Positions 43,506 through 61,878 of a DNA stretch of 64,000 bases are shown in pieces. A program made the translations under genes and the position numbers. The notes beneath the pieces are model-generated. The model worked only from the letters and a program-made list of their open reading frames with translations. It was not told where the DNA came from and ran no database searches. The stretch covers positions 1 to 64,000 of the forward strand of contig JODI01000057.1 in NCBI GenBank assembly GCA_000720805.1. The letters are read 5' to 3'. Origin of the DNA: Streptomyces violaceoruber (GTDB taxonomy: Bacteria; Actinomycetota; Actinomycetes; Streptomycetales; Streptomycetaceae). How positions within the stretch are numbered: position 1 is the stretch's first letter; each line of letters begins with the position of its first letter.

Positions 43506-43540
43506 GCCCCCCATCCTCGCCGCATCCTGCCTGGCTATCC

Positions 43541-43560
43541 AGAGACTGCCGATCCATGGC
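43541..43560. promoter_or_regulatory. CCATGG-centred motif, site 1 (XRE copy A)
   Basis: AGAGACTGCCGATCCATGGC. It matches site 2 at 17 of 18 positions outside the variable pair, and sites 3 and 4 in the reverse orientation. Its placement before an XRE gene and before SDR genes suggests that it is that regulator's binding site. Confidence 0.6.
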
Positions 43561-43596
43561 TGAGCCCACCTCTCTCACCCGCGCGAAGCCGCAAAT

Positions 43597-43905
43597 TCAC
43601 CGACTGTCGGCGGTACGCCGCAGGCTGTCGGTCTGGAAGACGGCCCGCCGCGACGATCCCCCCGTCGAGGACACCCAACGCTTTGACCGGCCCCGGGACT
43701 CGTCACCCGGCCCGGCCGACACGACGATGTTCGCCGTGTCAGACAGGCGCTCACGTGCCTCTCGGCGCTCAGGACGGAGCCGGTCGCCTCCAGTGCGACG
43801 ACCGGGGCGAAGCCGAAGGCGCTTCCTTACCGTTCCGCGTCTCCGGTGAGGACCTCCCCGAGGCGGGTCCAGCTCGCGATCATCCATGATGCGGCCCGAC
43901 AGGAC
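43597..43905 (-). pseudogene. SnoaL-like protein, decayed copy A
   Basis: The minus strand holds pieces that align with the intact SnoaL-like protein at 45067: MDDRELD (MDDHELD there) in one frame, RLGEVLTGDAE in another, then ANIVVSAGPGDESRGRSKRW and TDSLRRTADSR, matching TNIVVSEGPGYEVRARSKGL and DDLRRTDDGWR. At least two frameshifts separate them. It sits between the XRE and SDR genes, exactly as the equivalent fragment does in copy B. Confidence 0.7.
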
Positions 43906-43944
43906 CCGCCCGCGTGCTGTTGTTCCGCGTCTGCCACAGATCGG

Positions 43945-44571
43945 TCAGCTGCCGCTGAGCATGGCGAGGACTTCGCCGTAGGAGCCGTTGGCCACCGCGT
44001 CGCGGAGGAACCTGGCTCGCTCCACGACCAGCTCCTTCGCGTCGGGCTTCTCACGCAGCAGGCCGAGAACCTCGGTGAGGAAGTCGTCCAGCGGCATGGA
44101 CTGGTCGTTGTCCTGCTGGCCCATCAGGGTCGTGCGCACAGCCGGCGGGACCACCTCGATCACCTGGACGCCGGCATCAGCACCGGCGAGTTGGATGCGG
44201 AGGCTCTCGGAGAAGGAGTGCAGCGCGGCCTTGGTCGCACTGTAGGTCGGCGTGAACGGGAGCGGTACGAACGCCAGCGCGGAAGTGACGTTCACGACGA
44301 CCGCGTCGTCCTTGCCCACCAACAGCGGCAGGAAGGCGTACGTCATCCGGATCGTGCCGAGCAGATTGGTCGCGACGTGATCCTCGGCGGCCTGGAGTCC
44401 GGCCGGGTCGAGGACGCTCTCCGGCAGCTGAATTCCGGCGTTGTTGACCAGGACGTTCAGCCCCGGGTGGCTCGCCGCCACGGTCTCACGGGCCCGGGCG
44501 ATCGAGTCGGGGTCCGCGACATCGAGGACGAGGGGCGCCCGCGAAGGGGCGGGAGAGGACGGTTTATCCAT
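43945..44571 (-). CDS. SDR lacking its cofactor-binding N-terminus (copy A, probably non-functional)
   Basis: 208 aa from ATG 44571. It begins MDKPSSPAPSRAP and then jumps straight into LVLDVADPDSIARARETVAA. NNAG is kept in HPGLNVLVNNAGIQ, as are Ser/Tyr/Lys in VVNVTSALAFVPLPFTPTYS then ATKAALHSF. The TGxxxGIG cofactor loop and first two strands, about 50 residues, are missing. Comparison with the fragments at 50650 and 61610 shows why: the leader of the gene has been joined to its middle by a deletion at a shared GCCCCTCG-like sequence. The frame is open, but NAD(P) binding should be lost. Confidence 0.8.
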   Translation of the reverse strand: MDKPSSPAPSRAPLVLDVADPDSIARARETVAASHPGLNVLVNNAGIQLPESVLDPAGLQAAEDHVATNLLGTIRMTYAFLPLLVGKDDAVVVNVTSALAFVPLPFTPTYSATKAALHSFSESLRIQLAGADAGVQVIEVVPPAVRTTLMGQQDNDQSMPLDDFLTEVLGLLREKPDAKELVVERARFLRDAVANGSYGEVLAMLSGS

Positions 44572-44586
44572 GGACGGGTGGTCTCT
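44567..44586. promoter_or_regulatory. CCATGG-centred motif, site 3 (SDR copy A)
   Basis: On the minus strand AGAGACCACCCGTCCATGGA, ending in the ATG used by SDR copy A. It agrees with sites 1, 2 and 4 except at two or three positions. Confidence 0.55.
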
Positions 44587-44613
44587 GCCTCGTGAAGCGA
44601 ACGCCGGCCGTCG

Positions 44614-44781
44614 GGCTGGGTCCTGCAGAAGCTGGGCGGCGACCGCGGTCCCGGCCGAGGCGTCGTCCACGCCGTCGACTGCGAGGAAGCACTCGCCGGG
44701 GCGCCGCTGCTGGCCCTGGACCAGGCACTGGACGCCGCGGAGCATCCCGGGACCCGGCTGTGCTCCCTGTGCAGCCCATGC
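44614..44781 (+). pseudogene. DUF6233-like C-terminal fragment
   Basis: The plus strand reads GWVLQKLGGDRGPGRGVVHA, then VDCEEALAGAPLLALDQALD and AAEHPGTRLCSLCSPC. From memory this is the C-terminal zinc-like (CxxC) part of the DUF6233 proteins that are common in Streptomyces (D-C-E-x-A-P-A-G-A, E-x-P-G-x-R-x-C-x-L-C). No start or N-terminal half is present. Function unknown. Confidence 0.5.
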
Positions 44782-44873
44782 TCGACGTCCCGTACGAGCT
44801 GGTTGAGCACGTCTCGTAGCTCACGACCGCAGCTCTTTCCTGTGCGCGATCTCCATGGTGGCCGGCTGGGGAG

Positions 44874-44894
44874 GATTGTCGGTCCATGGACATG
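44874..44894. promoter_or_regulatory. CCATGG-centred motif, site 5 (SnoaL-like gene), weaker
   Basis: GATTGTCGGTCCATGGACAT on the plus strand keeps CGGTCCATGGAC but not the AGAGAC part. It lies about 170 bp before the intact SnoaL-like gene. Confidence 0.35.
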
Positions 44895-44939
44895 TGATCC
44901 TCTCCCGCCCCCGCCGATACACCCCCATAGTCGAGACTG

Positions 44940-45036
44940 CCGGGCGCGCCCGGCCCCTGCGGCGAAGGAGAGTATCGCCGAGGTCAACGGCGCCTGCGAC
45001 CAGGTGCTGGCCCTGCTGAGCGGTGCCAAGACCTGA
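44940..45036 (+). pseudogene. C-terminal tail of an unidentified protein
   Basis: The plus strand reads RPAPAAKESIAEVNGACDQV then LALLSGAKT and a stop. It looks like the last helix of a real protein, with strong codon bias, ending 30 bp before the SnoaL-like gene. The upstream part is missing, and I cannot name the family. Confidence 0.35.
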
Positions 45037-45066
45037 TCCAGCAACGCACAAAATGGAGAGCCGAAC

Positions 45067-45459
45067 GTGAAACCCACGCATGAAGACACCGTCGAAATCA
45101 GCAGGGCCGTGGCGCTGTGGGCGCACATCATGGACGACCACGAACTGGACCGTCTCGGCGAATGCCTCACCGAAGACGCGGTGTGGGACGGCAGCGTCTT
45201 CGGCGGCGACCCGGTCGTCGGGCTGGACGCGATCGCGACCTTCATGAACGCCCCCGGACACGCGAAAGCCCACCACACGACGAACATCGTCGTGTCGGAA
45301 GGCCCGGGCTACGAGGTGCGGGCCCGATCCAAAGGTCTGAGCCTGCTGGAGGGCGGCGGTGTCGCCAGCGTCGTCTACGCCGACGACCTGCGACGCACCG
45401 ATGACGGCTGGCGCATTTCCCGGCGGGTCATCCATCTCACCTGGCCACATCGCTTCTAG
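45067..45459 (+). CDS. SnoaL-like / NTF2-fold protein
   Basis: 130 aa. NTF2-like helix and sheet: VALWAHIMDDHELDRLGECL, TEDAVWDGSVFGGDPVVG, HHTTNIVVSEGPGYEVRARS and LRRTDDGWRISRRVIHL. The fold serves as polyketide cyclase, dehydratase or ligand binder. It is the only complete copy in the window; decayed relatives lie in the two cassettes. Its stop TAG (45457-45459) uses the TA target and first base of the IS5-family element, so the insertion may have replaced the original last codons. Confidence 0.82.
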   Translation: MKPTHEDTVEISRAVALWAHIMDDHELDRLGECLTEDAVWDGSVFGGDPVVGLDAIATFMNAPGHAKAHHTTNIVVSEGPGYEVRARSKGLSLLEGGGVASVVYADDLRRTDDGWRISRRVIHLTWPHRF

Positions 45460-46360
45460 GGGTGCTTTCAACAAGCCGGGTGCTTGCGGGCGAGTGTCAT
45501 GCAGTGGGCGAGTTGCAGTAGGCGTCGTGCATGTCGTCGCGTGCTTCCCACTGGATCCACAGGCGGCGAGGGCCATGGAGCCAGGCGTTGGCGGACTCGG
45601 CGTCCCAGCGGACCTTGCCCGGACCCGAGCCGTGCGGCTGGCTCCGTCGAGCGATCTTCGGTGTGATGCCACGCTCGCGCAGTCGGCGGCGATAGAGGTC
45701 GTAGTCCTAGCCGCGGTCGGCATACAGCATCCTGGGTTTGCGCCGGGGGCGGCCCCGCTTGCCCCGCACCGACCCAAGGCTGTCGATCAGCGGCAGAAGC
45801 CCGGTGACATCGTGGCGGTGACCGCCGGTCAGCGACACCCGCAGCGGAGTGTCGCGGGCATCGGTCAGCACGTGATGCTTCGAGCCCGGCCGCCCGCGGT
45901 CAACCGGGCTCGGACCGACTTTCGGGCTGCTTCGCCCCCGCTGGGCCTGCACGTGCGAGGCGTCGATGGTGGCGCGGGAGAAGTCGAGACGGTCCGCCGC
46001 CCGCAACCCGTCCAGCAGCACCCGCTGGAGCTCCTCCCACACCCCGGCCTCCTGCCACTCGGCCAGCCGCCGCCAGCAGGCAGGACCGGAACCGAACCCC
46101 AACTCCTGCGGCAGGAACTCCCACTGGACACCTGTGTACAGGACGAACAACACACCCTGGAGCGTCCTGCGGTCATCGCTCCGCTTACGCCCCCGGTACC
46201 GGAACCGCCGCTCACGCTTCGGCAACAGCGGCTCGATCACCACCCACAACTCGTCACTGATCTCCCACGGCTTCCGCCGCGCCATGGTCACACCCCACAG
46301 AAAACACGGGATTACGCACATCTCCACCGTGCCACAACACGATCTTCCTGCAAGGACCCC
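45459..46360. mobile_element. IS5-family insertion sequence, about 900 bp
   Basis: Left end GGGGTGCTTTCAACAAGC (from 45459), right end, read inward on the minus strand, GGGGTCCTTGCAGGAAGATC (from 46360). These are imperfect terminal repeats. TA stands at both flanks (45457-45458 and 46361-46362), as expected for one IS5 subgroup. It carries one broken transposase gene. The right end lies 22 bp before the start codon of the epoxide-hydrolase-like gene, and the left end forms the stop of the SnoaL-like gene. The MITE-like elements at 3901 and 28323 share its outer 12 bp. Confidence 0.85.
45468..46285 (-). pseudogene. IS5-family transposase, nonsense mutation plus frameshift
   Basis: From ATG 46285 (ARRKPWEISDELWVVIEPLL) the frame is typical: GVQWEFLPQELGFGSGPACW, the first Asp in SRATIDASHVQA, GGHRHDVTGLLPLIDS and the second Asp in MLYADRG. 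A TAG at 45707-45709 then replaces the conserved Tyr codon of DRGYDYD. The same frame continues with DYDLYRRRLRERGITPKIAR and the Glu region VRWDAESANAWLHG. Near 45517 a one-base loss shifts the end, whose correct text LQLAHCMTLARKHPAC lies in the next frame, ending at 45468. All three catalytic acids survive in the DNA, but no full protein can be made. Confidence 0.85.
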
Positions 46361-46382
46361 TAAAAAAGGACGTAACACCGCC

Positions 46383-47321
46383 ATGCACGCTTTCACCACC
46401 GCCGTAGCCGTCGGGTCGGAGGAGCCGCTCAGCCCCGGCTACGACGCGGCAACCAAGGACGACACCGAGTTCAACCAGCACTTCCGGCACGGCTTCACCA
46501 CCATCGACGACGTACAGATGCACTACGTCATCGGCGGCGACGGCCCGCAGGTCATGGTGCTGCTGCACGGCTGGCCGCAGAGCTGGTACGAGTACCGCCC
46601 GATCATGCCCTCGCTGCTGCCCGGCCGCACCGTCATCGCCATCGACCTGCCCGGCATGGGCGACTCGACCGGAAACCCGCCCTCCATGACCAAGACGGTC
46701 CTGGCCACCTACGTCCACAAGCTGCTCAACCACCTCGGCCACCACGAGAACGTACACGTCGTCGCCCACGACCACGGCCTCAACGTCGCCTACCCACTGG
46801 CCGCCCAGCACCGCGACCAGGTGGCGGGCCTGTTCCTCATGGACGCCGCCCTCGTCGGCAAGAACCTGAAGTTCGCCACCCTCGAATCGACGTTCTGGCA
46901 CTTCTCCTTCTTCATGCAGAATCCGCTCGCCGAGGAACTGGTCACCGGCCGGGTCGAAACCTTCCTCACCCACTTCTTCCAGAGTGTGAAGACCGCCGGC
47001 GAGAACGTCTCCGACGACGAACTCGCCGAGTTCGTCCGGGTGTACTCCCGTCCCCAGGTCCTGCACGCCGGCTTCGAGCTCTACCGGACCCTGACCCAGG
47101 ACGAGGCCGACAACACCACACTCCAGGACACCCCGCTGACCATCCCGGTCCGCATGATCACCCAGGCTGGCCTCGCCGACATATTCCTGCCGACCATCCA
47201 GGACGCCGCCCCCCACGCCGCCTCCGCCGTCGTCCCCGGCGCCGGACACTTCCTCGTCCACGAAGCACCCGACCGCGTCCTGGCCGAGATCAACGCCTTC
47301 TACCCCACCTCAACCCACTGA
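46383..47321 (+). CDS. epoxide-hydrolase-like alpha/beta hydrolase
   Basis: 312 aa. HGWPQSWYEYRPIMPSL is the HGxP oxyanion motif of epoxide hydrolases and haloalkane or haloacetate dehalogenases. The nucleophile position is Asp in VHVVAHDHGLNVAYPLAAQH, and GAGHFLVHEAPDRV carries the His. Asp at the nucleophile elbow makes an epoxide or halide substrate more likely than an ester. AAGGACG at 46366-46372 precedes ATG 46383. The IS5-family element ends just upstream, so the native promoter is displaced and expression may depend on the IS end. Confidence 0.88.
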   Translation: MHAFTTAVAVGSEEPLSPGYDAATKDDTEFNQHFRHGFTTIDDVQMHYVIGGDGPQVMVLLHGWPQSWYEYRPIMPSLLPGRTVIAIDLPGMGDSTGNPPSMTKTVLATYVHKLLNHLGHHENVHVVAHDHGLNVAYPLAAQHRDQVAGLFLMDAALVGKNLKFATLESTFWHFSFFMQNPLAEELVTGRVETFLTHFFQSVKTAGENVSDDELAEFVRVYSRPQVLHAGFELYRTLTQDEADNTTLQDTPLTIPVRMITQAGLADIFLPTIQDAAPHAASAVVPGAGHFLVHEAPDRVLAEINAFYPTSTH

Positions 47322-47762
47322 CCAAAAAGCACCACACGACCACATGACGCCCAAACCACCCGATGCCAGAACTCGCGCGGTCCCTGAACGGCGACCTCGA
47401 AAGCCGGCACACCGAGGCCAACGTAAACGGCGCCTGACGACGTCTCAGCCGGATCACACCTGCCGGCATCCGCGTACGAGTGGATCCGCACCCCGGTCGG
47501 GGAACACGTCCAGGTGCAGTCCGCGAGTGGTGGGACGGGCGTGGCGACCGCGCTCGTCGGCGGCGCACCGATTCTGCCGGTCCGGCCCGGCGAGCTGTCC
47601 GGTCCGTCCCTGGGTGTCACGCTGGAGGCGTGGGGGCCGGCGGCCGGGCCGGTCCGTGGGCAGACCAGCCGAGCTGGTGATCACCCGACCGAGGCCGTCC
47701 ATGCCGCTGCACTTCTGGAACGACGCAGGTGGCAGCCGTCACCGCGTCGGCCCCGTCCCTCC
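47322..47762. other. intergenic stretch, no supported gene
   Basis: About 440 bases between convergent genes. One plus-strand frame is open from about 47460 (SAYEWIRTPVGEHVQVQ onward) with fair codon bias, but it has no start signal and no motif I recognise. No strong hairpin seen. Confidence 0.4.
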
Positions 47763-48506
47763 TCACATGGAAATTGCGCGGTTCAGGCGGACAAGGTATT
47801 CCGCGTCTGGTTGCACGCCGGCCCCGAAGCGTTCCCGGATCACGGCAAGCTCGAGGTCGCGCCGCTTCGGTGATCGCGCCGCGTCGGCCGTCGCCAGTGC
47901 GTCCGGCAGCTCCTGACGGGTGAGATCCGTGCAGTAGGCGGGTGTGCCGGGCTGTTGCCGCCACGATTCCGCGAGCGGCCCCGCATCAAAGGCGTCGAAC
48001 CCGGTGTCCTCTACGAGTGCCATGGCCAGGTCACGCTCGCGCGGACTGTCGGCCGCGACGGGGAGCGAGATGCGGTCCGCACTTCCCGCCGGCTTGTTCC
48101 TGTGCGCGAACGACTCGGCTCCGATCGAGTTCCACGCCTTGACGATGGGCCGGCCCAGCTGTGTGGCAACCCACATGCTCTCGGCCTGGCCGGCCTCGAT
48201 CGCCGCGATTCCGTTGTCCCGGTGCGGGAAGTAGTTCGACGTGTCGATGACCACCGTGTCAGCCGGCACCTTGGCGATCAGCGGCGCGACCTGCGGAATA
48301 CGATCGAAGGGAATGGAGAGGATCACGGCGTCGACGTCCACTACGGCTTCCGCCGCGGTCACCGCGCGTCCGCCCGAGGACAGCACGTCCGCCTCGATCG
48401 TCTCCGGGCCGCGCGAATTGGCCGCCTTCACCTCGTGCCCGGCCGCGCTCAACCGCCTGATCAACGTCGTGCCGATGTTCCCGGTGCCGAGAATGCCGAT
48501 CTTCAT
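47763..48506 (-). CDS. NADPH-dependent F420 reductase-like protein (second full copy)
   Basis: 247 aa. MKIGILGTGNIGTTLIRRLS, AVILSIPFDRIPQVAPLI, VIDTSNYFPHRDNGIAAIE, IVKAWNSIGAESFAHRNK and ESWRQQPGTPAYCTDLTRQE. The last motif closely mirrors DSWRQQPNSPAYCTELTLDE of copy A, so the two are paralogues, though more diverged than the duplicated cassette. AAGGAG precedes ATG 48506. It lies beside the left edge of cassette copy B on the same strand. Confidence 0.87.
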   Translation of the reverse strand: MKIGILGTGNIGTTLIRRLSAAGHEVKAANSRGPETIEADVLSSGGRAVTAAEAVVDVDAVILSIPFDRIPQVAPLIAKVPADTVVIDTSNYFPHRDNGIAAIEAGQAESMWVATQLGRPIVKAWNSIGAESFAHRNKPAGSADRISLPVAADSPRERDLAMALVEDTGFDAFDAGPLAESWRQQPGTPAYCTDLTRQELPDALATADAARSPKRRDLELAVIRERFGAGVQPDAEYLVRLNRAISM

Positions 48507-48723
48507 GGTGAGACTCCTTGTCCGGAACGGAACCCCGGTTTCGGTGACCGGGATTCCGGGGCTTGGTCCCTGCGGCGCGACTGGGCCTGCGGCCGACCGC
48601 GGACGCGGTGGCGTGAGTGGGTGATGACGACCTTGCCGAAGTGAGCGCCGCTCTTTGTGTTTGTGGTGTGCCGGCGCTGCCGCCGTCGTGTCCGTTGCGC
48701 GCACGAGTGCCGCGTCGGGTGAC

Positions 48724-49122
48724 TCAGCGGTGGGCGGCGCGGTCTATCTCAACGACGTCCTCCAGGGTGGCCGTGGCCGGGAGGGCGGCCAAACGCTCCG
48801 GCACACTGTCGCGGATACGGGCGTCCTTGACACGGTCGGCCGCGGCCAGCGCCACGGGAAGCTCATCGAGGGTCAGTTCGGTGCAGGAGGCGGGGCTGTT
48901 CGGCTGCTGGCGCCAGGAGTCGGCCAGCATGCCGGCGTCGTAGCCCGTGTCGTCCACGAGCCGCATGGCCGCACGCCGCGCCTCCTCAAAGTCGGCCGGT
49001 GACGGGGATGGCGAGGCGGCCGGACGTTCCGGCCGGAACACCCCGGGTGCGCTCAGGAGGGCAGCGCGGTTGCGCTGGACGTCCGCGCAGGGCTTGCATC
49101 CTCGCTGTTCACCGGCGCTCAT
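48724..49122 (-). pseudogene. fusion of TetR start to F420-type reductase end (cassette copy B, deletion product)
   Basis: 132 codons from ATG 49122. The first 22 (MSAGEQRGCKPCADVQRNRA then AL) equal the start of the TetR at 42422 but for two Cys changes. The chain then switches to reductase sequence: one stretch (VFRPERPAASPSPSP) lies in the wrong frame relative to copy A. It then returns to the right frame with LVDDTGYDAGMLADSWRQQP and NSPASCTELTLDELPVALAA to the end. A deletion therefore removed most of TetR, the spacer and the reductase N-terminus, about 0.9 kb compared with copy A. Neither protein can work. Confidence 0.8.
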
Positions 49123-49461
49123 GCGCCCTCCTGCCTGCCGTGATCCTGCGGCCGCATCAAAACGGATGCCGCCTCCGTATGTCTGCGAGAGTAAACGGAG
49201 TCGGCCTCCGGTCAAACCGGTGGCCCGACCACGGAGCCCGGACAGCCCAGAGGCCCACCTGTCTGGCCGCCGCAGCGCGCAGGACAAGAGCCGTGCGGAA
49301 GTGGGTGCGCGGGGTGCTGCGCCGCCGGTCCCGACGGCTTCCGGCGTCCTGGACCGTGAACCGCATGCATCACCAGCGCCCTGACCGGGTTCGGCACACA
49401 GGTCTCCAACTTGTTCGGCCCCTCCCGCGCCGAGCCCGGCCCGGTCCCCCGGTCCAGGACG

Positions 49462-50301
49462 TCAGGGGGTGAGCTGCTCGTGCCCGATGACGGAGAGCAG
49501 TTCGAGCTTGCTGTGGCTCTCCGTGCCGGGGCGAGTGGTCAGCACCACCAGGGTCTGCGCGCGGTTCTCAGTGAACAGGAGCTGGGCGTCGACATCGATG
49601 CGACCGAGTTCGGGATGGAGGAGGGTCTTGCAGTCGTCGTAGCTCTGTGCGACCTCCTGAAGTTCCCACATGCGGACGAACTCAGGGCTGTGTTCCTGGA
49701 GTTCGGTGAGGATCCGGGCGGCTCGGGGGGTGTCGCTGCCGGCTGTCAGCGCGGCCCGCAGGCGCGCTGCATGGGCGCGGCCGTGGTGCTCGTGGACCTC
49801 CTCGGGATACACCAGACGTTCGGCCGGGTCCACGAACCAGCGGTAGTAGCCGCTGCTGGCCAGACCGGTGTGGCGGGTCTGGTCGCCGAGCAGGGCGATG
49901 GCCAAGGGGTTCATCGCGAGGGTGTCGAGCAGGTCGGTCTGCACCAGGGCCGGGGAGTCGTCCAGGCGGTCCAGGACCCGCAGCAGGGTCGGGCTGACGT
50001 GTTCGGAGCGGTGGAAGCGGGCCGGGGCGTTGTGGCCGATGAGGGCGAAGAGATGGTCGCGTTCGTCCAGGGTCAGCCGTAGTGCCCGGGCGAGGGCTGT
50101 GGTGATCTGGACGGAGGGCTGCGGGGCACGCTGCTGTTCCAGGCGAGCGTAGTAGTCGGTGGACATGCCGGCGAGCTGCGCGACCTCCTCGCGGCGCAGA
50201 CCCTGTGTACGCCTGCGCGCCCCCTCGACCAGCCCGACGTCACGCGGCCGCAGCGCCTCACGCCGATGGCGCAGGAATTCCGCCACTTCCTTCTTGTCCA
50301 T
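49462..50301 (-). CDS. XRE-family regulator with MmyB-like ligand-binding domain (copy B)
   Basis: 279 aa. Nearly the same protein as that at 42669: RRTQGLRREEVAQLAGMSTD, LARALRLTLDERDHLFALIG, YYRWFVDPAERLVYPEE and LELLSVIGHEQLTP. Differences are mostly conservative, and one residue is inserted (AQSYDDC against ARYGDC). The reading frame is intact, so this copy is probably still functional, unlike its neighbours. ATG 50301 is preferred over in-frame starts further upstream. The motif site 2 (50336-50355) lies 35 bp upstream, the same distance as in copy A. Confidence 0.92.
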   Translation of the reverse strand: MDKKEVAEFLRHRREALRPRDVGLVEGARRRTQGLRREEVAQLAGMSTDYYARLEQQRAPQPSVQITTALARALRLTLDERDHLFALIGHNAPARFHRSEHVSPTLLRVLDRLDDSPALVQTDLLDTLAMNPLAIALLGDQTRHTGLASSGYYRWFVDPAERLVYPEEVHEHHGRAHAARLRAALTAGSDTPRAARILTELQEHSPEFVRMWELQEVAQSYDDCKTLLHPELGRIDVDAQLLFTENRAQTLVVLTTRPGTESHSKLELLSVIGHEQLTP

Positions 50302-50335
50302 GCCCCCATCCTCGCCGCATCCCGCCCGGCTATCC

Positions 50336-50355
50336 AGAGACCACCGATCCATGGC
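50336..50355. promoter_or_regulatory. CCATGG-centred motif, site 2 (XRE copy B)
   Basis: AGAGACCACCGATCCATGGC, followed by TGAGCCC as at site 1. It has the same position relative to the XRE start as in copy A. Confidence 0.6.
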
Positions 50356-50409
50356 TGAGCCCTCCCCTCCCACCCGCGAAGCCGCTCACACGGCCGACGC
50401 GAGGGCGTT

Positions 50410-50605
50410 CGCAGCGAGACGCCCCGATGATCACCTGCCCCTGCGTGACCCGCTGGGAAGTTCGCCGGCTGTCGGCGGTACGCCGCAGTCCGTCGGCATG
50501 GAAGGTGGCCTGCGGCGAGGGTCTCCGTCGAGGACTCCTGACGCTTTGGAATGGCCCCGGGCCTCGTCGCCCGGCCCGGCCGATAGGACGAGGTTCGTCG
50601 TGTGA
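50410..50605 (-). pseudogene. SnoaL-like protein, decayed copy B
   Basis: The minus strand from about 50605 reads HTTNLVLSAGPGDEARGHSK, matching HHTTNIVVSEGPGYEVRARS of the intact protein at 45067. It then drifts out of frame (GVLDGDPRRRPP). Only the second half is left. It holds the same place between the XRE and SDR genes as the copy A fragment. Confidence 0.65.
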
Positions 50606-50649
50606 CGGCCCTCGCGTGCTGTTGTTTCCCGTCGGAAATTACAGGTCGG

Positions 50650-51265
50650 TCAGCTGCCGGCGATCATAGCGAGGACGTCGTCGTAGGAGCCGGTGGCCAC
50701 CGCGTCGCGGATGAACCTGGCACGCTCGACGACAATCTCCTTCGCGTCGGGCTTCTCGCGCAGCAGGTCGAGGGCCTCGGTGAGGAAGTCGTCCAGCGGC
50801 ATGGCGTGTTCGCTGTCCTGCTGGCCGAGCAGGGTGGTTTGCACGCCCGGCGGGACCATCTCGACCACCTGGACGCCTGCGTCGGCACCGGCGAGCTGGA
50901 TGCGCAGGCTCTCGGAGAAGGAGTGCAGCGCGGCCTTGGTCGCACTGTAGGTCGGGGTGCTCTGATAGGGGACGAACGCCAGCGCCGAGGTGACGTTCAT
51001 GACGACCGCGTCGTCCTTGCCCACGAGCAGGGGCAGGAAGGCGTACGTCATCCGGATCGTGCCGAGCAGATTGGTCGCGACGTGATCCTCGGAGACCTGG
51101 AGTCCGGCCGGGTCTAGGAGGTTCTCCCGCTGCATGATGCCGGCGTTGTTGACCAGGACGTTCAGCCCGGGGTGGCTCGCCGCCACGGTCTCACGGGCCC
51201 GGGCGATCGAGTCGGGGTCCGCGACATCGAGGACGAGGGCGTCGATGCCCGGGTGCTCGGCCGTG
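50650..51265 (-). pseudogene. SDR, N-terminally truncated (copy B)
   Basis: From about 51265 the minus strand reads ITAEHPGIDALVLDVADPDS, ASHPGLNVLVNNAGIMQ, TSALAFVPYQSTPTYSATKA and so on to the stop at 50650, parallel to copy A. The piece before ITAEHPGID is replaced by IS630-type transposase sequence, so the cofactor loop and start are gone. In this frame the first usable start is GTG 51186 inside the protein. The missing N-terminus resembles the fragment at 61610-61767, which ends at TTAHPGID. Confidence 0.8.
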
Positions 51266-51269
51266 ATCG

Positions 51270-52005
51270 GACCGGCGCTCCCTGGCTGATCCGCAGACGA
51301 CGCTCCTGCCGGTCAGCGCCTCCAGAGCGGGAGCAGCGAGCCACCGGTAGGAGACGGCCCGGCTGGTAGCGGACCATCCCTGCCCCCGACACCCGGCCCG
51401 ATCCTCGCCCGCGTACCCGCACTACGGGCGTGCAGCCCCTGCGGCCCCAGGTCCTGGAGCGCGGCGGCGTCAGCGACTGCCCGGCCTCGTCCTGGAAGAC
51501 GATCCAGGCACCGAGAGCCGCCGCGGTGCTTTTACCCGCGGCCAGACGTCCTTCTTCCACAACTAGACCGCCGCGTCGTCGCGTTCGATGGCCCGGCGGG
51601 CGGGCTGCTGCCACGACCAGCCGTGCCGTCTCAGGAGCCGCCACGTGCCTTGGAGCGTGTGCGAGACGTGGAACATGCGACCAATGAGCGTCTTCACCCG
51701 GGCCAGTGTCCACCGCTGATCTGCCCAGCCGTGTGCCAACGGCCCACGCTGCAACTCGCTTTCAAGCCGGGCCACTTGAGCATTGTTGAGCTTGGGTCGT
51801 CGGGGTGATCCCTCGGAGGCGACACCGGCCGCACCGCGTTCGCGCCAGGACCGGCGCCACCGCTCCACGAACCGCTCGCTCACTCGCAGCGCGGCGGCGA
51901 CCTCCGGTTCTTCTCCCCGCGCTCGAAGCGGTCCCCGGCCTGCAAGCCGGACCCCCTCCCGCGCTGCCTTCCCAGCGTCGGTCAGCCCGCCGCCCTGCGC
52001 TTATC
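51270..52005 (-). pseudogene. IS630-family transposase, degenerate
   Basis: Running leftward from about 52005, the pieces LTDAGKAAREGVRL, QAGDRFERGEKN and VAAALRVSERFVERWRRSWR lie in different frames. A long clean part follows: GPLAHGWADQRWTLARVKTL and RLLRRHGWSWQQPARRAIER. A stop at 51563 replaces a codon before LWKKDVWPRVKAPRR. In yet another frame comes the catalytic Asp region AWIVFQDEAGQSLTPPRSRT then WGRRGCTPVVRVRG. This is a winged-helix plus DDE transposase of the IS630 type with three or more disruptions. It truncates the neighbouring SDR. Confidence 0.75.
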
Positions 52006-52123
52006 TCACAAGCCCACAGCTACCTGACCATCGCAGAGGCGTCAGGAGAACGCCCCGACATCACCCGATCAAGTTCAGTAGTATCTCTCTAAATTCCTTG
52101 AGAGTGTGAGAGAGCGCGAACGA

Positions 52124-53137
52124 TCAGGCTCCTGACAAGCCAAGGAGCGCGTCGGCGTTGCCATGGGCGATCCGCGCCCGATCGGCGGGAGAAACCGGCA
52201 AGTTGTTGAGGAACGCCGTGGCCTCGTCATTGGGGCTGTACGGATAATCGACCGAGAAAAGGATGCGATCCGCACCGAAAGCGGTCAGGGCGGCAAGGAA
52301 CGCGGATTGGTCGAAGAAACCACTGGTCGTGATCCACACCTGATCCAAGATGGTCTGCGATACGTCCCGCTTCAGCCCGATTGCCTTTCCCGGTCCGAAC
52401 ATCGCATCGACGCGCTGGAGCATCATCGGCAGCAGCTCGCCCATATGGCCGATGATCAGCTTCAGATCCGGATTTCGGTCGAGTGCACCCGACACGGCCA
52501 GGCGCAGAATGTGAAGCCCCGTTTCCGCATGCCAGCCGAAACCGGCATTAGACAAGATGAACGCGGTAAAGTCCGGCAGCCCCTGGAAGTAGATGTCGCG
52601 CACCACACGTGGCGCGGGTCCGGGATGAATATAGAGGGGGGCGCCGATGGCCTCGGCACGCGACAGGATCGGAGCGAAGCGCGGGTCGTCGAGGAACAGT
52701 CCGTCGGTGGTCCCGTTGATCGAGGCGCCGCGGAAGCCCAATCGGGTCACGCACCGTTCCAGTTCGTCCGCGGCCGCCTCGGGATCCTTCATGGGGAGGT
52801 GCGCGAACGCCGCGAACCGATCCGGATGCCGTTCGACGACCTGGGCCAGTCGGTCGTTATAGTCGCGCGCAAGGCTCACACCCTCCTCACCGGCCAGCAT
52901 CTCGGCGCCCGGGCCCACGGCCGACAGCACCTGCATGGTGATTCCGGCTTCGTCCATCGAGCCGATGCGTTCCTGCCGCGTATCGTCCAGGGCCCGGTCG
53001 AGCGCACTCGGCGCCTCGTCTGCATCAGAGGGCGCCCATCCGGCCGGCACCCATCCGGATGCGGCGACGTCCGCAGCGGAAATCCTCTGCGCCAGATCAG
53101 TGAAAAGGACGTGTTCCTCTAGAGCAACGATTCGCAT
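52124..53137 (-). CDS. amidohydrolase-2 family protein, likely aromatic-acid decarboxylase
   Basis: 337 aa. The metal ligands of the ACMSD / gamma-resorcylate decarboxylase group are in place: Glu in MRIVALEEHVLF, His in GAPLYIHPGPAPRV, His in DLKLIIGHMGELLPMMLQRV, Asp in ILFSVDYPYSPNDEATAFL. GFRGASINGTTDGLFLDDPR and GFGWHAETGLHILRL fit the same group. It would remove CO2 from a hydroxybenzoate-like acid or hydrolyse a related compound. ATG 53137 has GGAGAAC upstream. Three 60-base lines I counted have 58-62% GC, against 78% in a line of the GH95 gene, so it looks acquired. Confidence 0.85.
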   Translation of the reverse strand: MRIVALEEHVLFTDLAQRISAADVAASGWVPAGWAPSDADEAPSALDRALDDTRQERIGSMDEAGITMQVLSAVGPGAEMLAGEEGVSLARDYNDRLAQVVERHPDRFAAFAHLPMKDPEAAADELERCVTRLGFRGASINGTTDGLFLDDPRFAPILSRAEAIGAPLYIHPGPAPRVVRDIYFQGLPDFTAFILSNAGFGWHAETGLHILRLAVSGALDRNPDLKLIIGHMGELLPMMLQRVDAMFGPGKAIGLKRDVSQTILDQVWITTSGFFDQSAFLAALTAFGADRILFSVDYPYSPNDEATAFLNNLPVSPADRARIAHGNADALLGLSGA

Positions 53138-53196
53138 GATCTTGTTCTCCGTCCAATGGGAATGTGAGTGCGACACAAGGGGGCGGCGCTCGGCGG

Positions 53197-56010: not shown

Positions 56011-56294
56011 GAAAGACTCCCTTCCTTAGGTGCCAGGCGCCGTGGTCGGCTGGCTTCCGCCGCAACGTTCCGGCTTGCCGGGGAGCCGAGGCCAGCCACG
56101 AGCGCCGGATCCCGGAAATCCGACATCGGGGCCTTCGGTCCGGAGGAAGCCCGACACGGCAGAGAACAACGGCTGGCAGCTCCCGGCGTGCCCGATGAAC
56201 TGGCAGAGCCGCGGGTACCGCCGTTCCGGCCGCGCTGCGATGCGGGTCCGGGGACGGCGCAGGCGCCGTCCCCGGCGAGGGCAAAGGTCGTCAT
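56007..56294 (-). CDS. hypothetical 95-aa frame coupled to the exporter gene
   Basis: ATG 56294 follows AAGGACTGATC on the minus strand. The frame ends in a TGA that overlaps the exporter's GTG by 4 nt, the same coupling used elsewhere in the window. The product (MTTFALAGDGACAVPGPASQ onward) matches nothing I know. Codon third positions are less GC-biased than in real genes here. A 13-bp perfect stem at 56248-56275 lies inside its 5' part. It may be a leader whose translation controls the exporter, or chance. Confidence 0.35.
   Translation of the reverse strand: MTTFALAGDGACAVPGPASQRGRNGGTRGSASSSGTPGAASRCSLPCRASSGPKAPMSDFRDPALVAGLGSPASRNVAAEASRPRRLAPKEGSLS
56248..56275. other. 13-bp hairpin in the exporter leader
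   Basis: CCGGGGACGGCGC (56248-56260) and GCGCCGTCCCCGG (56263-56275) pair exactly around 2 nt. It lies 65 bp after the XdhC-gene stop marker on the leftward strand side and 240 bp before the exporter start, so it could be a terminator or an attenuator. Confidence 0.5.
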
Positions 56295-56339
56295 GATCAG
56301 TCCTTGTGTGGGAGGGGCCGTCCCGGAGGGCGTGCCAGG

Positions 56340-57500: not shown

Positions 57501-57632
57501 GGGTCGTTCTCCGGGTTCGCCGTGGGGAGGGAGGGAGTACGGGAGTGCGGGCGGGTTGCCGCCACGCGCGGACGCTGAGCGCATACGCGGGGAGACCCTG
57601 GTAGGTCCGGCGGTCGGACGGGGGCCGACGTT

Positions 57633-57660
57633 GGTCGGTGCGACGTCGGTCGCACCGACC
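57633..57660. terminator. 12-bp stem hairpin after the molybdenum subunit gene
   Basis: GGTCGGTGCGAC (57633-57644) and GTCGCACCGACC (57649-57660) are exact complements around 4 nt. It lies 40 bp beyond the stop of the leftward gene at 57700. It could also be a regulator site for the xdhC gene downstream. Confidence 0.65.
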
Positions 57661-57699
57661 AGGCACTCCTGCTCGCAGTGATCCTGACGGGTTGACGGC

Positions 57700-59874
57700 C
57701 TACATCACGTGCTCGATCCGGATGGGCAGCCGGTTCTGTCGCTGTCCGGTGGCGTGAAAGACCGCGTTCGCGACAGCGGCTGCCGCGCCGATCATCGTGA
57801 CCTCGCCGAGGCCCTTCACACCGACGTCGTTGAGGAGCAGATCGGGCTCGTCGATGAAGTCGAAGTCGATCTCCTGTATGTCGGCGTTGACCACGAAGGG
57901 GTACTCCTCCAGCGTGGTGTTGAGGAATCCGCCGAAGCGCGGGTCGACCTCGCTCGACTCCCGGAGCGCCTGGCTGATACCCCAGGTCACGCCCCCGCGG
58001 ACCTGACTGGCCGCGGTGACCGGGCTGGCGACCCGTCCGCAGTCGACCACACAGAGCGCCCTGGGCACACTGATGCGCCGTGTCGTGGCCTCGATGCGGA
58101 CCTCGACGAAGTGAGCGACCCAGCTGAAGGCCGTGAAGTCCGGGAAGACCGGACCCGCGGCGGAGAACAGGCCGGCCCGTGAACGGTCCAGCATCTCGGG
58201 GGGCTGGCCCGGTCCCACGGAGGTCACCTCCACGTCCGTCGCCCCGCCTCCGGTGGCCCGGACCGCGGCTGCCACATCCACGGTCCCGGTGTCGCCCGCG
58301 CCGAGCTGCTTGCGCAGCTCGCGCAGTGCCTTGTGCACCGCGGGCAATGCCGTCGTGGTGCCCCACGCACCGGCGGTGAGATGCTGCGGCGCGAAGCGCG
58401 TGTCACCAACCTGCACGACGACGTCCCGCACGGGAACACCGAGGTCCTCCGCGACCAGGAGAGCGATGGCCGAGCGGATGCCCTGCCCCATCTCGTGACC
58501 GTCGACGCCAACGGTCACCCGGCCATCGACCGCCGCGGACATACGGGCCACGGCCGGAGCGACCAGGACCGGGTGGGCGCCGACAGCGACGCCAAGGCCC
58601 ACGAACGATCCGTCAGCGGCACGCATCGACCCCGGCCGCGGATCGCGTTTGTCCCATCCGAACCGCTCCGCACCCCGCGTCAGACACCGCGCCAGGTGGC
58701 GGGAGGAGAAAGGCAGCCCGGTGACCGGGTCCGTGCCGGTGTCGTTGGCCAACCGCAGCTCGACGGGATCCCGGCCGGTGGCGTAGGCCAGTGCGTCGAT
58801 CGCCGACTCGAACGCGAAGCTGGCCGGGCCCTCCATCGGAGCCCTCATGAATCCCGGCGTCTGGACATCGGTCTGAACCAGGCGCTGACGTCCCCCGAAA
58901 TTGGGTACGCCGTACAGCCTCGACGTCATCTCCGTGAACATGGCGGGGTACAGGTCGTGGCGGGACGTCTGGTGCTCCGCGTCGTGGAGGGCGGCCAGGA
59001 GCCGTCCCGACGGGTCGGCGCCGAGCCGGATGCGGTGACGGCTGACCGGCCGGAAGCTGCCGGCGTGGAACGTCTGCGGGCGCGGAACGACCAGCTTGAC
59101 CGGACGCATCAGTCGGCGTGCGGCGAGCGCCAGCGGCCCGATGTGCGGCTGCAGTGCGTTGCGGGAGCCGAAGCCGCCTCCGGTGTAGGGCGAGATCACT
59201 TCGACATCCGCCGGATCGAGGTTCAGCTGCGTGGCAACTCCGTGGCGCAGTGCGCCGGCGTTCTGGGTGCCCTCGTGCACCACGAGCCTGTCGCCCCGCC
59301 ATTCCACGACCGAGCTGGTCAGTTCCATCGGGACCTGGTGCTGGGCCGGGTGCAGGTAGGTCTCGTCGATCTGCACCGGGCTCGCTGCGTATGCGCTCTC
59401 GGCGTCGCCCACCTTGATGTCGGGAAACCAGGGCAGGGCTTCTTCCTGGATGACGGAGGTGGCGCCTTCGTCGTCGAGTCCGACGGCGAACGGCTCGGTC
59501 TCGTAGCGTGCCCGGACGAGTTCCGCCGCCTCGGTTGCGGCGACCAAGGTGTCGGCGACGACCAAGGCGATCGGCTGTCCCCGGTAGGCGACGACATCGC
59601 TGAGCAGCGGCTGCAGGCTCTGGAAGGAGAAGCCTCCACCCATCAGGAACCCGGGTCCACGCAGTTCGTCCTCGGTGAACCGGGTCAGGACCAGACGGAC
59701 TCCGGGGACCGCCTCGGCCGCGGCGGTGTCGATGGCCAGGGTGCGGCCCTTTCCGATCGTGGCCAGGGCGAACATGGCATACGCCAGGTCGTCCGGGACG
59801 CGGTCGGCCCCGTAGCGTGCGGTGCCGGTGACCTTTTCGTGGGCGTCGACGCGGCGCAGGTCTGGGGTCTTCAT
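57700..59874 (-). CDS. aldehyde/xanthine dehydrogenase, molybdenum-binding subunit (PaoC/YagR type)
   Basis: 724 aa, the length of the PaoC group. RVDAHEKVTGTARYGADRVP opens the chain, QIDETYLHPAQHQVPMELTS and PYTGGGFGSRNALQPHIGPL follow, then AHPVLVAPAVARMSAAVDGR and VTVGVDGHEMGQGIRSAIAL. The catalytic Glu lies in DVGVKGLGEVTMIGAAAAVA. It hydroxylates aldehydes or purines at the Mo centre. The ATG at 59874 overlaps the stop of the FAD subunit. Gene order FeS-FAD-Mo-XdhC equals that of paoABCD. No Tat signal is seen on the FeS subunit, so the enzyme should be cytosolic. Confidence 0.93.
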   Translation of the reverse strand: MKTPDLRRVDAHEKVTGTARYGADRVPDDLAYAMFALATIGKGRTLAIDTAAAEAVPGVRLVLTRFTEDELRGPGFLMGGGFSFQSLQPLLSDVVAYRGQPIALVVADTLVAATEAAELVRARYETEPFAVGLDDEGATSVIQEEALPWFPDIKVGDAESAYAASPVQIDETYLHPAQHQVPMELTSSVVEWRGDRLVVHEGTQNAGALRHGVATQLNLDPADVEVISPYTGGGFGSRNALQPHIGPLALAARRLMRPVKLVVPRPQTFHAGSFRPVSRHRIRLGADPSGRLLAALHDAEHQTSRHDLYPAMFTEMTSRLYGVPNFGGRQRLVQTDVQTPGFMRAPMEGPASFAFESAIDALAYATGRDPVELRLANDTGTDPVTGLPFSSRHLARCLTRGAERFGWDKRDPRPGSMRAADGSFVGLGVAVGAHPVLVAPAVARMSAAVDGRVTVGVDGHEMGQGIRSAIALLVAEDLGVPVRDVVVQVGDTRFAPQHLTAGAWGTTTALPAVHKALRELRKQLGAGDTGTVDVAAAVRATGGGATDVEVTSVGPGQPPEMLDRSRAGLFSAAGPVFPDFTAFSWVAHFVEVRIEATTRRISVPRALCVVDCGRVASPVTAASQVRGGVTWGISQALRESSEVDPRFGGFLNTTLEEYPFVVNADIQEIDFDFIDEPDLLLNDVGVKGLGEVTMIGAAAAVANAVFHATGQRQNRLPIRIEHVM

Positions 59875-60872
59875 CGGGCGGCTCGCTTCCCGGCGGTGAG
59901 CAGTGCGTCGGTGACGGTGCGGATGCCCAGTTCGACCCGGAACGCGCCGGTGCGAGGGGCGCGGGCCTCGTGGAAGGCGACTTCTCCCGCGTGGCGGGCG
60001 GTTTCCCTGGTGAGTCGCTCGCCGATCAGCGAGCGTTCCGCTTCCGTCGCCCGCCAGGGGCGCGTGGCGACCCCTCCCAGACCGATCCGGCAGTCCGTGA
60101 CCATTCCTCGTGCGTCCAGCGTCACGGCGGTGGCGGCCGAGGTGAGGGCGAAGGCGTAGGACTCCCGGTCACGGATCTTGTGGTAGGTGGAGCCGCGACC
60201 GGCGGGTGTCGCGGGAACGCGGATCCGCAGGATCAACTCATCGGGGGCCAGGGTGTGTTCGAGCAGGGGGTTGTCTCCCGGTTCGACGTGCAGGTCGCCG
60301 AGCGGCAGCGTCCGCTCGCCGCCTGGGCCGACCACGTCGAGTACGGCGTCGAACGCGATCAGGGCTACGGCCCAGTCGCCCGGGTAGGTGGCGATGCAGG
60401 TGCCACTGGTGCCCAGCAGCGCGTGGGTGCGGTCTAGTCCCTCGAGAGCCGCACAGCCGCTGCCGGGATTCCTCTTGTTGCAGGGGAACTCCGCTCCGCC
60501 GCGGAAGTAGCCGCATCGCGTGCGTTGCAGCAGGTTCCCGCCGACCGTCGCCATGTTGCGCAGTTGCTGGGACGCCGCCCGCCACAGGGATTCCGACAGC
60601 GCCGGATAGTCACGGCGTACGACCGGATGGTCGGCGACCTCGGCCATTTTCACTCCCGCACCGAACGACAGTTCGTCCTCACCCGTGCTGATCTCGGTCA
60701 GCTCGGCGAGACGGTGAATGTCGATGACGGCCGGCGGCGCCTCGATGCCGAGCTTCATCAGGTCGTACAGGGTCGTGCCACCGGCCAGGATCTTGGTGCC
60801 CGGCTCGGCGGCGGCCAGGGCATCGACGGTCCCGGCGACGCTGTCGGGCACCACATAGGCGAATGAGCGCAC
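59871..60872 (-). CDS. aldehyde/xanthine dehydrogenase, FAD-binding subunit (PaoB/YagS type)
   Basis: 333 aa. FAD loops: GTKILAGGTTLYDLMKLGIE and RNMATVGGNLLQRTRCGYFR. The Cys-rich insert CGYFRGGAEFPCNKRNPGSG then CAAL is the extra iron-sulfur site typical of PaoB and 4-hydroxybenzoyl-CoA reductase type subunits. It passes electrons from the FeS clusters to FAD. Start 3 nt after the FeS subunit's stop; its end overlaps the Mo subunit's start by 4 nt. Confidence 0.93.
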   Translation of the reverse strand: MRSFAYVVPDSVAGTVDALAAAEPGTKILAGGTTLYDLMKLGIEAPPAVIDIHRLAELTEISTGEDELSFGAGVKMAEVADHPVVRRDYPALSESLWRAASQQLRNMATVGGNLLQRTRCGYFRGGAEFPCNKRNPGSGCAALEGLDRTHALLGTSGTCIATYPGDWAVALIAFDAVLDVVGPGGERTLPLGDLHVEPGDNPLLEHTLAPDELILRIRVPATPAGRGSTYHKIRDRESYAFALTSAATAVTLDARGMVTDCRIGLGGVATRPWRATEAERSLIGERLTRETARHAGEVAFHEARAPRTGAFRVELGIRTVTDALLTAGKRAAR

Positions 60873-60875
60873 CGT

Positions 60876-61403
60876 CTACACCTCGCTCTGCGCGGCCTGG
60901 GCGGCTTGGTCGGCCACCCGGCGTATGGCGGCGGTGATGCCGACATACGCGCCGCATCGGCACAGGTTGCCGCTCATGTACTCACGGATGTCGCCGTCGG
61001 TCCCGGTGTGGCCTTCGGCCAGGCAGGCCAGGCCGGACATCACCTGCCCAGGTGTGCAGTAGCCGCATTGCAGGGCGTCGCAGTCGACGAACGCCTGCTG
61101 CAACGGGTGCAGTGTGCCGTCGGGGGCCGCGACGCCTTCGATGGTCGTCACGTCCTGTCCCGCGACCTGGACCGCAGGGGTCAGACAGGACACGACGCGA
61201 CGGCCGTCGATGTGCACCGTGCAGGCGCCGCACTGCCCCTGGTCGCACCCCTTCTTGGTTCCGGTCAGCACGAGACGCTCGCGCAGCACGTCGAGCAAAG
61301 ACTCACGAGGATCCAGAGCGAGGCACACTTCCTCGCCGTTGACGGTGAAGGCCGTCTCGACAAGGCCGGTCGGCGGTCTAGCGGTCGTCGATATCCTCAT
61401 CAT
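60876..61403 (-). CDS. aldehyde/xanthine dehydrogenase, 2Fe-2S subunit (PaoA/YagT type)
   Basis: 175 aa. First cluster: KKGCDQGQCGACTVHIDGRR with VVSCLTPA. Second cluster: CDALQCGYCTPGQVMSGLAC and MSGNLCRCGAYVGITAAI. ATG 61403 is chosen because AAGGATGACG lies just upstream; ATG 61400 is equivalent. It is the first gene of the operon, and the fragment cluster 61.4-62.4 kb stands where its promoter and regulator would be. Confidence 0.93.
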   Translation of the reverse strand: MMRISTTARPPTGLVETAFTVNGEEVCLALDPRESLLDVLRERLVLTGTKKGCDQGQCGACTVHIDGRRVVSCLTPAVQVAGQDVTTIEGVAAPDGTLHPLQQAFVDCDALQCGYCTPGQVMSGLACLAEGHTGTDGDIREYMSGNLCRCGAYVGITAAIRRVADQAAQAAQSEV

Positions 61404-61469
61404 GACTTCGTCATCCTTTGCGACAGGGCCCCGACGAGGAGGGAGCGGGAGGGACTGGCAACCGCTTTC

Positions 61470-61590
61470 CTCTCGATTCCGACGCCCGAGTAGTCCTTCG
61501 TCATCATTGCTCGCCATCCGGAAAGGTCGATGTCGGCGATCAACTCAGCGGCCGTGGCTTCGAAGCCCAGCCTGGTCCGGATCCGCGCCG
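61470..61590 (-). pseudogene. degenerate SDR N-terminal fragment (second type)
   Basis: The minus strand reads RIRTRLGFEATAAELIADID then LSGWRAMMTKDYSGVGIERK. It resembles the start of a different SDR group (GF-x-(S/A)TA-x-x-(V/L)I-x-x-(I/V)DLSGK-x-A-x-VTGG-x-SGIG), with the cofactor loop TGGYSGIG decayed to TKDYSGVG. Nothing recognisable follows. Confidence 0.5.
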
Positions 61591-61609
61591 GGGGTTCGCT
61601 CTGGCGAGT

Positions 61610-61767
61610 CGATACCCGGGTGCGCAGTCGTGATCTCGTCGAGGAGTTCCCTGCGCCGGCCGGCGACGACCGTCTTGGTGTCGGCCTCGTGCAGGCGCAG
61701 GGCCGGCCCGGTGCCCGATGCCCGAGGTTCCGCCGTTGATCAGGATCGTGTTGCCGGTCATTTTCAT
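61610..61767 (-). pseudogene. SDR N-terminal fragment (cassette copy C)
   Basis: From ATG 61767 it reads MKMTGNTILINGGTSGIG, then after a frameshift ALRLHEADTKTVVAGRRREL then LDEITTAHPGID, and then ends. It supplies the cofactor-binding start that copies A and B lack, and it stops exactly where copy B begins (HPGID). The leader upstream, with ATGGATAAACC and the CCATGG motif, matches the DNA in front of copy A. The three are therefore remnants of one gene family. Confidence 0.65.
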
Positions 61768-61858
61768 GGGGGCCTCGCTCCTTCGTTGTGACGGGCCGGT
61801 GAGCGCCTCCGGCCTCGACCGTAGGGGCGCCCACGCAGTGGCGGGAGGGGAAGGTTTA

Positions 61859-61878
61859 TCCATGGATCGGCGGTCTCT
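61859..61878. promoter_or_regulatory. CCATGG-centred motif, site 4 (SDR copy C)
   Basis: On the minus strand AGAGACCGCCGATCCATGGA, about 92 bp before the SDR fragment's ATG. It is the closest of the SDR-side sites to those before the XRE genes. Confidence 0.6.

What the first reader, a model, noticed from the sequence alone, without database searches (positions are those of the whole stretch)
43541..61878. A shared 20-bp CCATGG-centred motif links XRE, SDR and SnoaL-like genes
AGAGAC-(Y/C)(R/A)-CCGATCCATGG-(M)-like sequence occurs at 43541, 50336 (both about 35 bp before XRE starts), 44567 and 61859 (before SDR starts, opposite strand), with a weaker form at 44874 before the intact SnoaL-like gene. 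Conservation of a non-coding 20-mer at matching positions in four decaying loci argues for a protein-binding site, most simply that of the XRE/MmyB regulator. That would make the scattered genes one regulon.
Basis: inference. Interest (0 to 1): 0.75.

Follow-up and report, generated by a model that had tools for sequence, protein, structure and literature searches.

The report
Operator of an MmyB-type regulator
The repeated DNA motif is very probably the docking site of a gene regulator that sits next to the enzyme gene it controls in many actinobacteria, and in this Streptomyces-like genome the sites survive beside several broken copies of that enzyme gene.

Summary
The motif is real: it occurs at 43541, 44568, 50336 and 61860 (0.15 hits expected by chance), with two decayed copies at 44869 and 51265. 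The rest of the genome adds two strong sites, at one more cassette of the same kind.

It is one 21-bp imperfect inverted repeat, CCATGGATCGGCGGTCTCTGG, which becomes near-perfect (CCAGGGAYCGSCGRTCCCTGG) in distant genera. It starts 52-54 bp before the regulator gene in 73 of the 80 closest regulator loci and accompanies the partner SDR gene through three gene orders. In diverged loci it holds 1.23 bits per column against 0.40 in the flanks.

Best reading: it is the operator of the adjacent XRE regulator (HTH + MLTR_LBD, MmyB/MltR type), serving that gene and an SDR(-SnoaL) operon. CCATGG is not the dyad centre of that repeat. It is the middle of three half-sites that would form two overlapping dimer sites, each centred about -43 from a seemingly leaderless start.

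'One regulon' holds for copies of this cassette, plus possibly a molybdenum-hydroxylase operon behind a captured SDR promoter. Binding has not been shown; activation versus repression is inferred.

The parts
43539..43559 (-). Operator of XRE copy 1, CCATGGATCGGCAGTCTCTGG, centre 44 bp before the ATG at 43505
   Evidence: 20 of 21 to consensus, 6 of 10 pairs
42669..43505 (-). XRE copy 1 (HTH_31 + MLTR_LBD), open; start set by homology at 43505
   Evidence: Pfam; ORF; 92% identical to copy 2
44568..44588 (+). Operator of SDR copy 1 (reads in the opposite direction to its gene), 17 of 21
43945..44567 (-). SDR copy 1, broken: promoter region fused into the gene, 5' part with the cofactor motif missing
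   Evidence: adh_short matches from profile position 53; comparison with intact relatives
44869..44889 (-). Decayed operator of a former SDR-SnoaL operon, 12 of 21, inner core kept
44974..45036 (+). Relic of an SDR C-terminus, IAEVNGACDQVLALLSGAKT*
45067..45459 (+). SnoaL-like gene, open
   Evidence: PF13577
50334..50354 (-). Operator of XRE copy 2, CCATGGATCGGTGGTCTCTGG, centre 43 bp before the ATG at 50301
   Evidence: 20 of 21, 6 of 10 pairs
49462..50301 (-). XRE copy 2 (HTH_31 + MLTR_LBD), open
51265..51285 (+). Truncated operator fused to SDR copy 2; right 17 bp kept
50650..51264 (-). SDR copy 2, 5' part missing
   Evidence: adh_short from profile position 74; tblastn
61860..61880 (+). 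Operator of SDR copy 3, CCATGGATCGGCGGTCTCTGC, centre 103 bp before the SDR ATG at 61767
   Evidence: 20 of 21
61604..61767 (-). 5' relic of SDR copy 3
   Evidence: homology to SDR promoter-gene regions of other genomes ends near here
57700..61517 (-). Xanthine-dehydrogenase-type genes (2Fe-2S, FAD and Mo-cofactor subunits) behind the SDR copy 3 promoter; candidate captured target
   Evidence: Pfam; junction also in a same-species genome

Best explanation
The motif is the operator of the adjacent XRE regulator, an MmyB/MltR-type protein with an XRE helix-turn-helix and a PAS-like ligand-binding domain. In the divergent form seen in distant genera it sits between two promoters, one for the regulator and one for an SDR enzyme, in some loci followed by SnoaL. 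Three half-sites about 15 bp apart would form two overlapping 21-bp dimer sites: O1, centred -43/-44 from the XRE start, and O2, centred about -43/-44 from the SDR start. They share the middle half-site, which in Streptomyces is the self-complementary CCATGG. Ligand-bound dimers most probably act from -43 as class II activators of the SDR promoter and autoregulate the regulator. In most Streptomyces loci SDR lies in tandem before XRE, and each gene has its own operator copy, in opposite orientation relative to its gene. In this genome the cassette was copied, the SDR copies broke, and operators and regulators remain. Shown: sites, symmetry, positions, conservation, gene order. Inferred: binding by this XRE, activation, ligand control, leaderless starts, mutual exclusion of O1 and O2.
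For: Upstream of XRE a site of at least 14 of 21 in 76 of 80 loci, 73 of them starting at -52 to -54. Complementary pairs at -53 average 5.8 of 10 against 2.9 over all positions, 44 loci. 1.23 bits per operator column against 0.40 in flanks, 38 loci. Site lies before SDR in divergent, SDR-then-XRE and XRE-then-SDR orders. A genus sample has the motif (up to 1 mismatch) in 11 of 150 genomes, 23 sites, 21 of them XRE- or SDR-side by their flanks, and 0 hits for the reversed control. Third half-site at least 5 of 7 in 20 of 33 loci against 5.8% of background positions; L101 lacks one 15-bp step and has the SDR ATG at 43. XRE domains.
Against: No binding data. In the window copies symmetry is weak (5-6 of 10 pairs), and for two own XRE copies another stretch scores as many or more raw pairs (L125, whose start was mis-set, and L128). 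4 of 80 loci (L064, L086, L094, L105) have no good site within 120 bp before XRE; L086 and L105 have one at SDR instead, L064 one 121 bp before the assigned start, L094 none. L065, L068 and L070 have SDR in tandem but no strong SDR-side site. L008 and L014 are genus hits with unrelated flanks. The third half-site is clear (6-7 of 7) in only 7 of 33 loci, and in 16 of 33 the best offset is another one. In 8 of 33 loci the XRE hexamer is not exactly 6 nt before the ATG. Related loci are not independent.
Confidence: 0.75

Rival explanations
1. Same operator and same regulator, but the XRE is a repressor: dimers at -43 cover the -35 regions of both promoters and ligand releases them.
For: The operator spans about -53 to -33 of the inferred XRE start and overlaps its -35 region. 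Autorepression is common for XRE proteins (general knowledge).
Against: Centre at -43/-44 is class II activator geometry; no TTGACA-like -35 is evident at either promoter (reading); family members are proposed to be activators (PMC3406030 section 13). None of this is decisive.
Confidence: 0.35
2. The element is an operator, but of another protein; the XRE is only a neighbour.
For: Binding by XRE is not shown. In many Streptomyces loci a TetR gene lies downstream of XRE (TetR query hits in 26 of 80 loci).
Against: The TetR gene is absent from most distant loci that keep the site, whereas the loci were found by XRE and keep XRE and SDR. Sampling was through XRE, so an SDR-plus-site locus without XRE would have been missed.
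Confidence: 0.12
3. The sites are alike only because the cassette was recently duplicated; the sequence has no function of its own.
For: In this genome the 0-1 mismatch sites are confined to XRE and SDR copies, and the similarity of promoter copies extends beyond the 21 bp.
Against: The same element stands out from its flanks in diverged loci (XRE identity down to about 53%) and keeps its place and symmetry.
Confidence: 0.05
4. CCATGG marks a start codon of a small protein, or the element is an RNA structure.
For: Short reading frames begin at that ATG.
Against: In many distant loci the arm is CCAGGG, without ATG; the site lies upstream of both inferred transcription starts.
Confidence: 0.02

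Closest known systems
MmyB/MltR family of XRE regulators (PF17765; MltR Caur_2278, PDB 3pxp; PMC3406030)
   Same: XRE HTH plus PAS-like ligand-binding domain; gene next to an SDR; shared upstream region with a divergent putative target; two-fold symmetric DNA target expected
   Different: The paper names no operator for this subfamily in the passages and sections I saw; MmyB's own pseudo-palindromic B-boxes are mentioned there without sequence in what I saw. Here a sequence, distance rule and target operon are given.
Catalogue of palindromic motifs of XRE regulators (PMC12565409)
   Same: Palindromes upstream of XRE genes found by comparing orthologs; 223 clusters; nine of ten tested pairs bound (abstract)
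   Different: The cluster tables are in supplements I could not read, so this motif may already be listed there; I saw the outline, part 1 of 2 of the results and the legends.
Lambda cI at OR2/PRM (recalled, no call)
   Same: XRE-fold dimer on an imperfect palindrome centred near -42 of a promoter, between divergent promoters, with several neighbouring sites
   Different: Here two sites would overlap and share a half-site; lambda sites are separate. A likeness of working, not of membership.

Membership tests
MmyB/MltR regulators (the two window XRE proteins) | XRE-type HTH at the N-terminus and MLTR_LBD at the C-terminus | tested here: met
   HTH_31 and PF17765 above cut-off in both, 127.9 and 133.8 bits against 26.3
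[quoted passage not shown]
   Met in many relatives, 33 divergent loci used; in the window itself SDR and XRE are in tandem
[quoted passage not shown]
   A symmetric site is present; binding was not testable
MmyB/MltR regulators (the two window XRE proteins) | Small-molecule (fatty-acid-like) ligand controls binding | not testable with these tools
   Proposed for MltR
MmyB/MltR regulators (the two window XRE proteins) | Sequence relation to the solved structure 3pxp | tested here: not met
   phmmer of copy 2 against PDB sequences at E 0.001 gave only 7t5u, a weak HTH hit. Full domain membership rests on Pfam; a profile or fold comparison was not run
   0-1 mismatch sites only at XRE and SDR copies; 17 further hits at 2-3 mismatches, against 45 in all for the reversed control. 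The xdh genes behind an SDR promoter are the one candidate exception

The most novel reading that the evidence does not exclude
The shared operator is a built-in switch: three half-sites give two overlapping dimer sites that compete for the central CCATGG, so a bound dimer serves either the regulator's promoter (O1 at -43) or the enzyme's promoter (O2 at about -44), never both. The module also spreads by promoter capture: the molybdenum-hydroxylase operon keeps the SDR operator and promoter in this genome and in a same-species genome whose SDR gene at that place is gone.
Probability: 0.25. Interest if true: 0.6.

Novelty: new member of a known kind. Interest (0 to 1): 0.42.

Why it matters
MLTR_LBD regulators are numerous (38 matches, some partial, in this genome alone), yet in the papers I searched and the parts I read I found no operator defined for this group. 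Here a precise, testable operator, its distance rule and its target operon are given for one widespread subfamily. A 21-bp inverted repeat about 43 bp before a seemingly leaderless start may help to read targets of other family members; at least three own-genome paralogs (L107, L109, L111) have a different palindrome at the same place. The cassette also shows regulators and operators outliving their enzyme gene, and an operator perhaps taken over by another operon.

Tried and rejected
Rejected: CCATGG as the dyad centre of the conserved 21-bp repeat. Rejected: coding remnant or RNA element. Rejected: a genome-wide regulon at unrelated genes. Led nowhere: papers naming this operator (searches; the text search for half-site strings, matched 648 papers, of which 25 were listed, none on this subject); PDB by sequence; Pfam on the short relics 61540-61971 and 61400-61834 (no family).

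Paralog survey: 30 loci fetched of 38 matches. An upstream region was printed for 21; two of these (L111, L114) are the same region, and L125 and L127 had a mis-set start or frame. L107, L109 and L111 have their best palindrome at -53/-54, with other sequences; L121 has one there by eye although its best-scoring one is at -45; most others show nothing clear. A family-wide rule is therefore suggested, not shown.

Rows dropped before counts: one search used 44 of 80 loci (those I judged divergent or distant); one search used 38 of these; one search used 33 divergent loci; one search used 33 sites picked from the listing (32 tandem loci plus L047, whose site lies between a second, divergent XRE and SDR; L075, which also has a site at 4074, was left out). 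Of the 33, 27 have centre to SDR ATG 102-103, 3 other values, 3 no start found by the pattern.

Full report
Observation. The whole genome (10.5 Mb, 350 contigs) holds six sites with up to 2 mismatches: four in the window and two on contig 27, again 1.2 kb apart. With a 21-bp degenerate consensus there are 5 sites at 0 mismatches, 1 at 1, 1 at 2 and 16 at 3; the reversed control pattern gives 45 in all, so only the first six stand out. Two decayed copies exist besides: 44869-44889 before SnoaL (12 of 21) and a truncated one at 51265-51285 before SDR copy 2 (14 of 21).

What carries the sites. Both window XRE genes encode HTH_31 plus MLTR_LBD, i.e. MmyB/MltR-type regulators. The contig-27 copy is 93% identical to copy 2. 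The SDR copies of this genome are broken: copy 1 has its promoter region fused into the gene; copy 2 lacks its 5' part and one operator arm; copy 3 is a 5' relic; a fourth is a C-terminal relic before SnoaL; the contig-27 copy has lost a stretch soon after its start. In related loci an SDR frame with the cofactor motif was found in 48 loci by a simple pattern that misses the variant motif of distant genera, so the decay is mostly local; the relic before SnoaL is shared with relatives.

Footprint. In 76 of 80 the 120 bp upstream of XRE contain a match of at least 14 of 21, 73 of them starting 52-54 bp before the start; the four without are L064, L086, L094 and L105. Far from Streptomyces the repeat is near-perfect, e.g. 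CCAGGGACCGGCGGTCCCTGG in several Promicromonospora and CCAGGGATCGGCGGTCCCTGG in Blastococcus. Over 44 divergent or distant loci the mean number of complementary pairs is 5.8 of 10 at -53, against 2.9 over all positions. Over 38 of them (effective number 20) the operator holds 1.23 bits per column, the flanks, which include the -10 and start codon, 0.40. In Streptomyces the symmetry is weaker: 5-6 of 10 pairs in the four strong window sites. In a genus sample, 11 of 150 genomes have the 19-mer with at most 1 mismatch (23 sites; the reversed control gives 0); by flank likeness 21 of the 23 are XRE- or SDR-side, L008 and L014 are not.

The site goes with SDR. In most distant genera SDR and XRE are divergent with one operator between them. 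In most Streptomyces loci SDR and XRE are in tandem and each has its own operator, in opposite orientation relative to its gene: 32 tandem loci listed, plus L047. In Solirubrobacter (L104; weaker in L086) the order is XRE, site, SDR; in Spirilliplanes (L105) site, SDR, XRE. Against this, L065, L068 and L070 have SDR in tandem without a strong SDR-side site. In 23 of 32 tandem loci the XRE-side site still carries a C/T-rich element like that on the SDR side (loose pattern), which would fit descent from the divergent form; this is inference.

Promoter geometry. In 25 of 33 divergent loci a nAnnnT hexamer ends exactly 6 nt before the XRE ATG. In 19 of 33 the SDR ATG lies 58-60 nt from the operator centre, and in L101 it lies at 43; of these 20, 19 have a nAnnnT hexamer exactly 6 nt before the SDR ATG. 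In 10 other loci the SDR ATG lies 84-145 nt away and in 3 it was not found. Both promoters look leaderless in the first group (inferred). In Streptomyces tandem loci the SDR has a leader, but TACGGT at columns 58-63 puts the inferred start about 59 nt from the centre. A third half-site lies about 15 bp further towards SDR: at least 5 of 7 in 20 of 33 loci against 5.8% of background positions, 6-7 of 7 in seven (L079, L083, L091, L096, L098, L100, L103); in 16 loci the best offset is 33, so outside these seven its identity is unsure. L101 (Microbacterium indicum) is shorter by one 15-bp step. The simplest reading is one dimer site at -43/-44 for each promoter, sharing the middle half-site. The loci are related, so the counts are not independent.

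SnoaL. SnoaL follows SDR directly in 10 of 80 loci (L028, L029, L032, L043, L049, L050, L053, L056, L060, L062) and in genome G091. In the window the SnoaL upstream region aligns with an SDR promoter, and IAEVNGACDQVLALLSGAKT* precedes the gene. The same fused structure is seen in L028, L044, L055, L062 and L138, not in L137. The weak fifth site is thus the operator of a former SDR-SnoaL operon; its inner core GGATYGTCGGTCC is kept.

Captured operon. Behind site 61860 the SDR homology stops near 61604, and genes with 2Fe-2S, FAD and Mo-cofactor domains of xanthine-dehydrogenase type follow on the same strand, then XdhC. A same-species genome (stretch L188) has a complete XRE frame (279 aa) and SDR frame (249 aa) elsewhere on the contig and, before the same xdh-type genes, an operator of 19 of 21 and about 120 bp of SDR promoter with no SDR relic found by blastn. 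That the operon is controlled from there is suggested, not shown.

Known work. PMC3406030 (passages, sections 12 and 13): 15 of 16 S. coelicolor paralogs share their upstream region with a divergent putative target; the regulators adjoin either an antibiotic-related gene (eight) or an SDR/MDR gene; a two-fold symmetric target and ligand-induced activation are proposed. PMC12565409 (outline, results part 1 of 2, legends) predicts 223 XRE motif clusters whose tables I could not read. PMC7532634 and PMC10717218 were seen as passages. Searches listed no paper with this operator. The lambda comparison and the class II activator rule are recalled.

Verdict. Observation confirmed; operator reading strongly supported but unproven; regulon claim narrowed to copies of one cassette plus one candidate operon.

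Noticed in passing
window 57700-61880; L188 9628-13654: Xanthine-dehydrogenase-type operon lies behind an SDR operator and promoter; in a same-species genome the SDR relic is gone but operator and promoter remain: possible promoter capture.
   Followed up: partly
window 44600-53187: Compared with L188 this stretch (second XRE-SDR copy, SnoaL, hydrolase, NADP-oxidoreductase genes, an IS4/5-type transposase at 45707-46399) has no collinear counterpart and looks inserted or duplicated.
   Followed up: partly
L107, L109, L111 (own-genome paralogs): Other MLTR_LBD regulators have different palindromes at the same -53/-54 position; in L107 two of them appear to overlap.
   Followed up: partly
L096, L098, L100, L102, L091: Two overlapping operator-like sites 15 bp apart in the SDR-XRE intergenic region.
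   Followed up: partly
window 41832-42482 and 49054-49179: TetR gene next to XRE copy 1 and a fragment of it next to copy 2; TetR query hits in 26 of 80 related loci.
   Followed up: no
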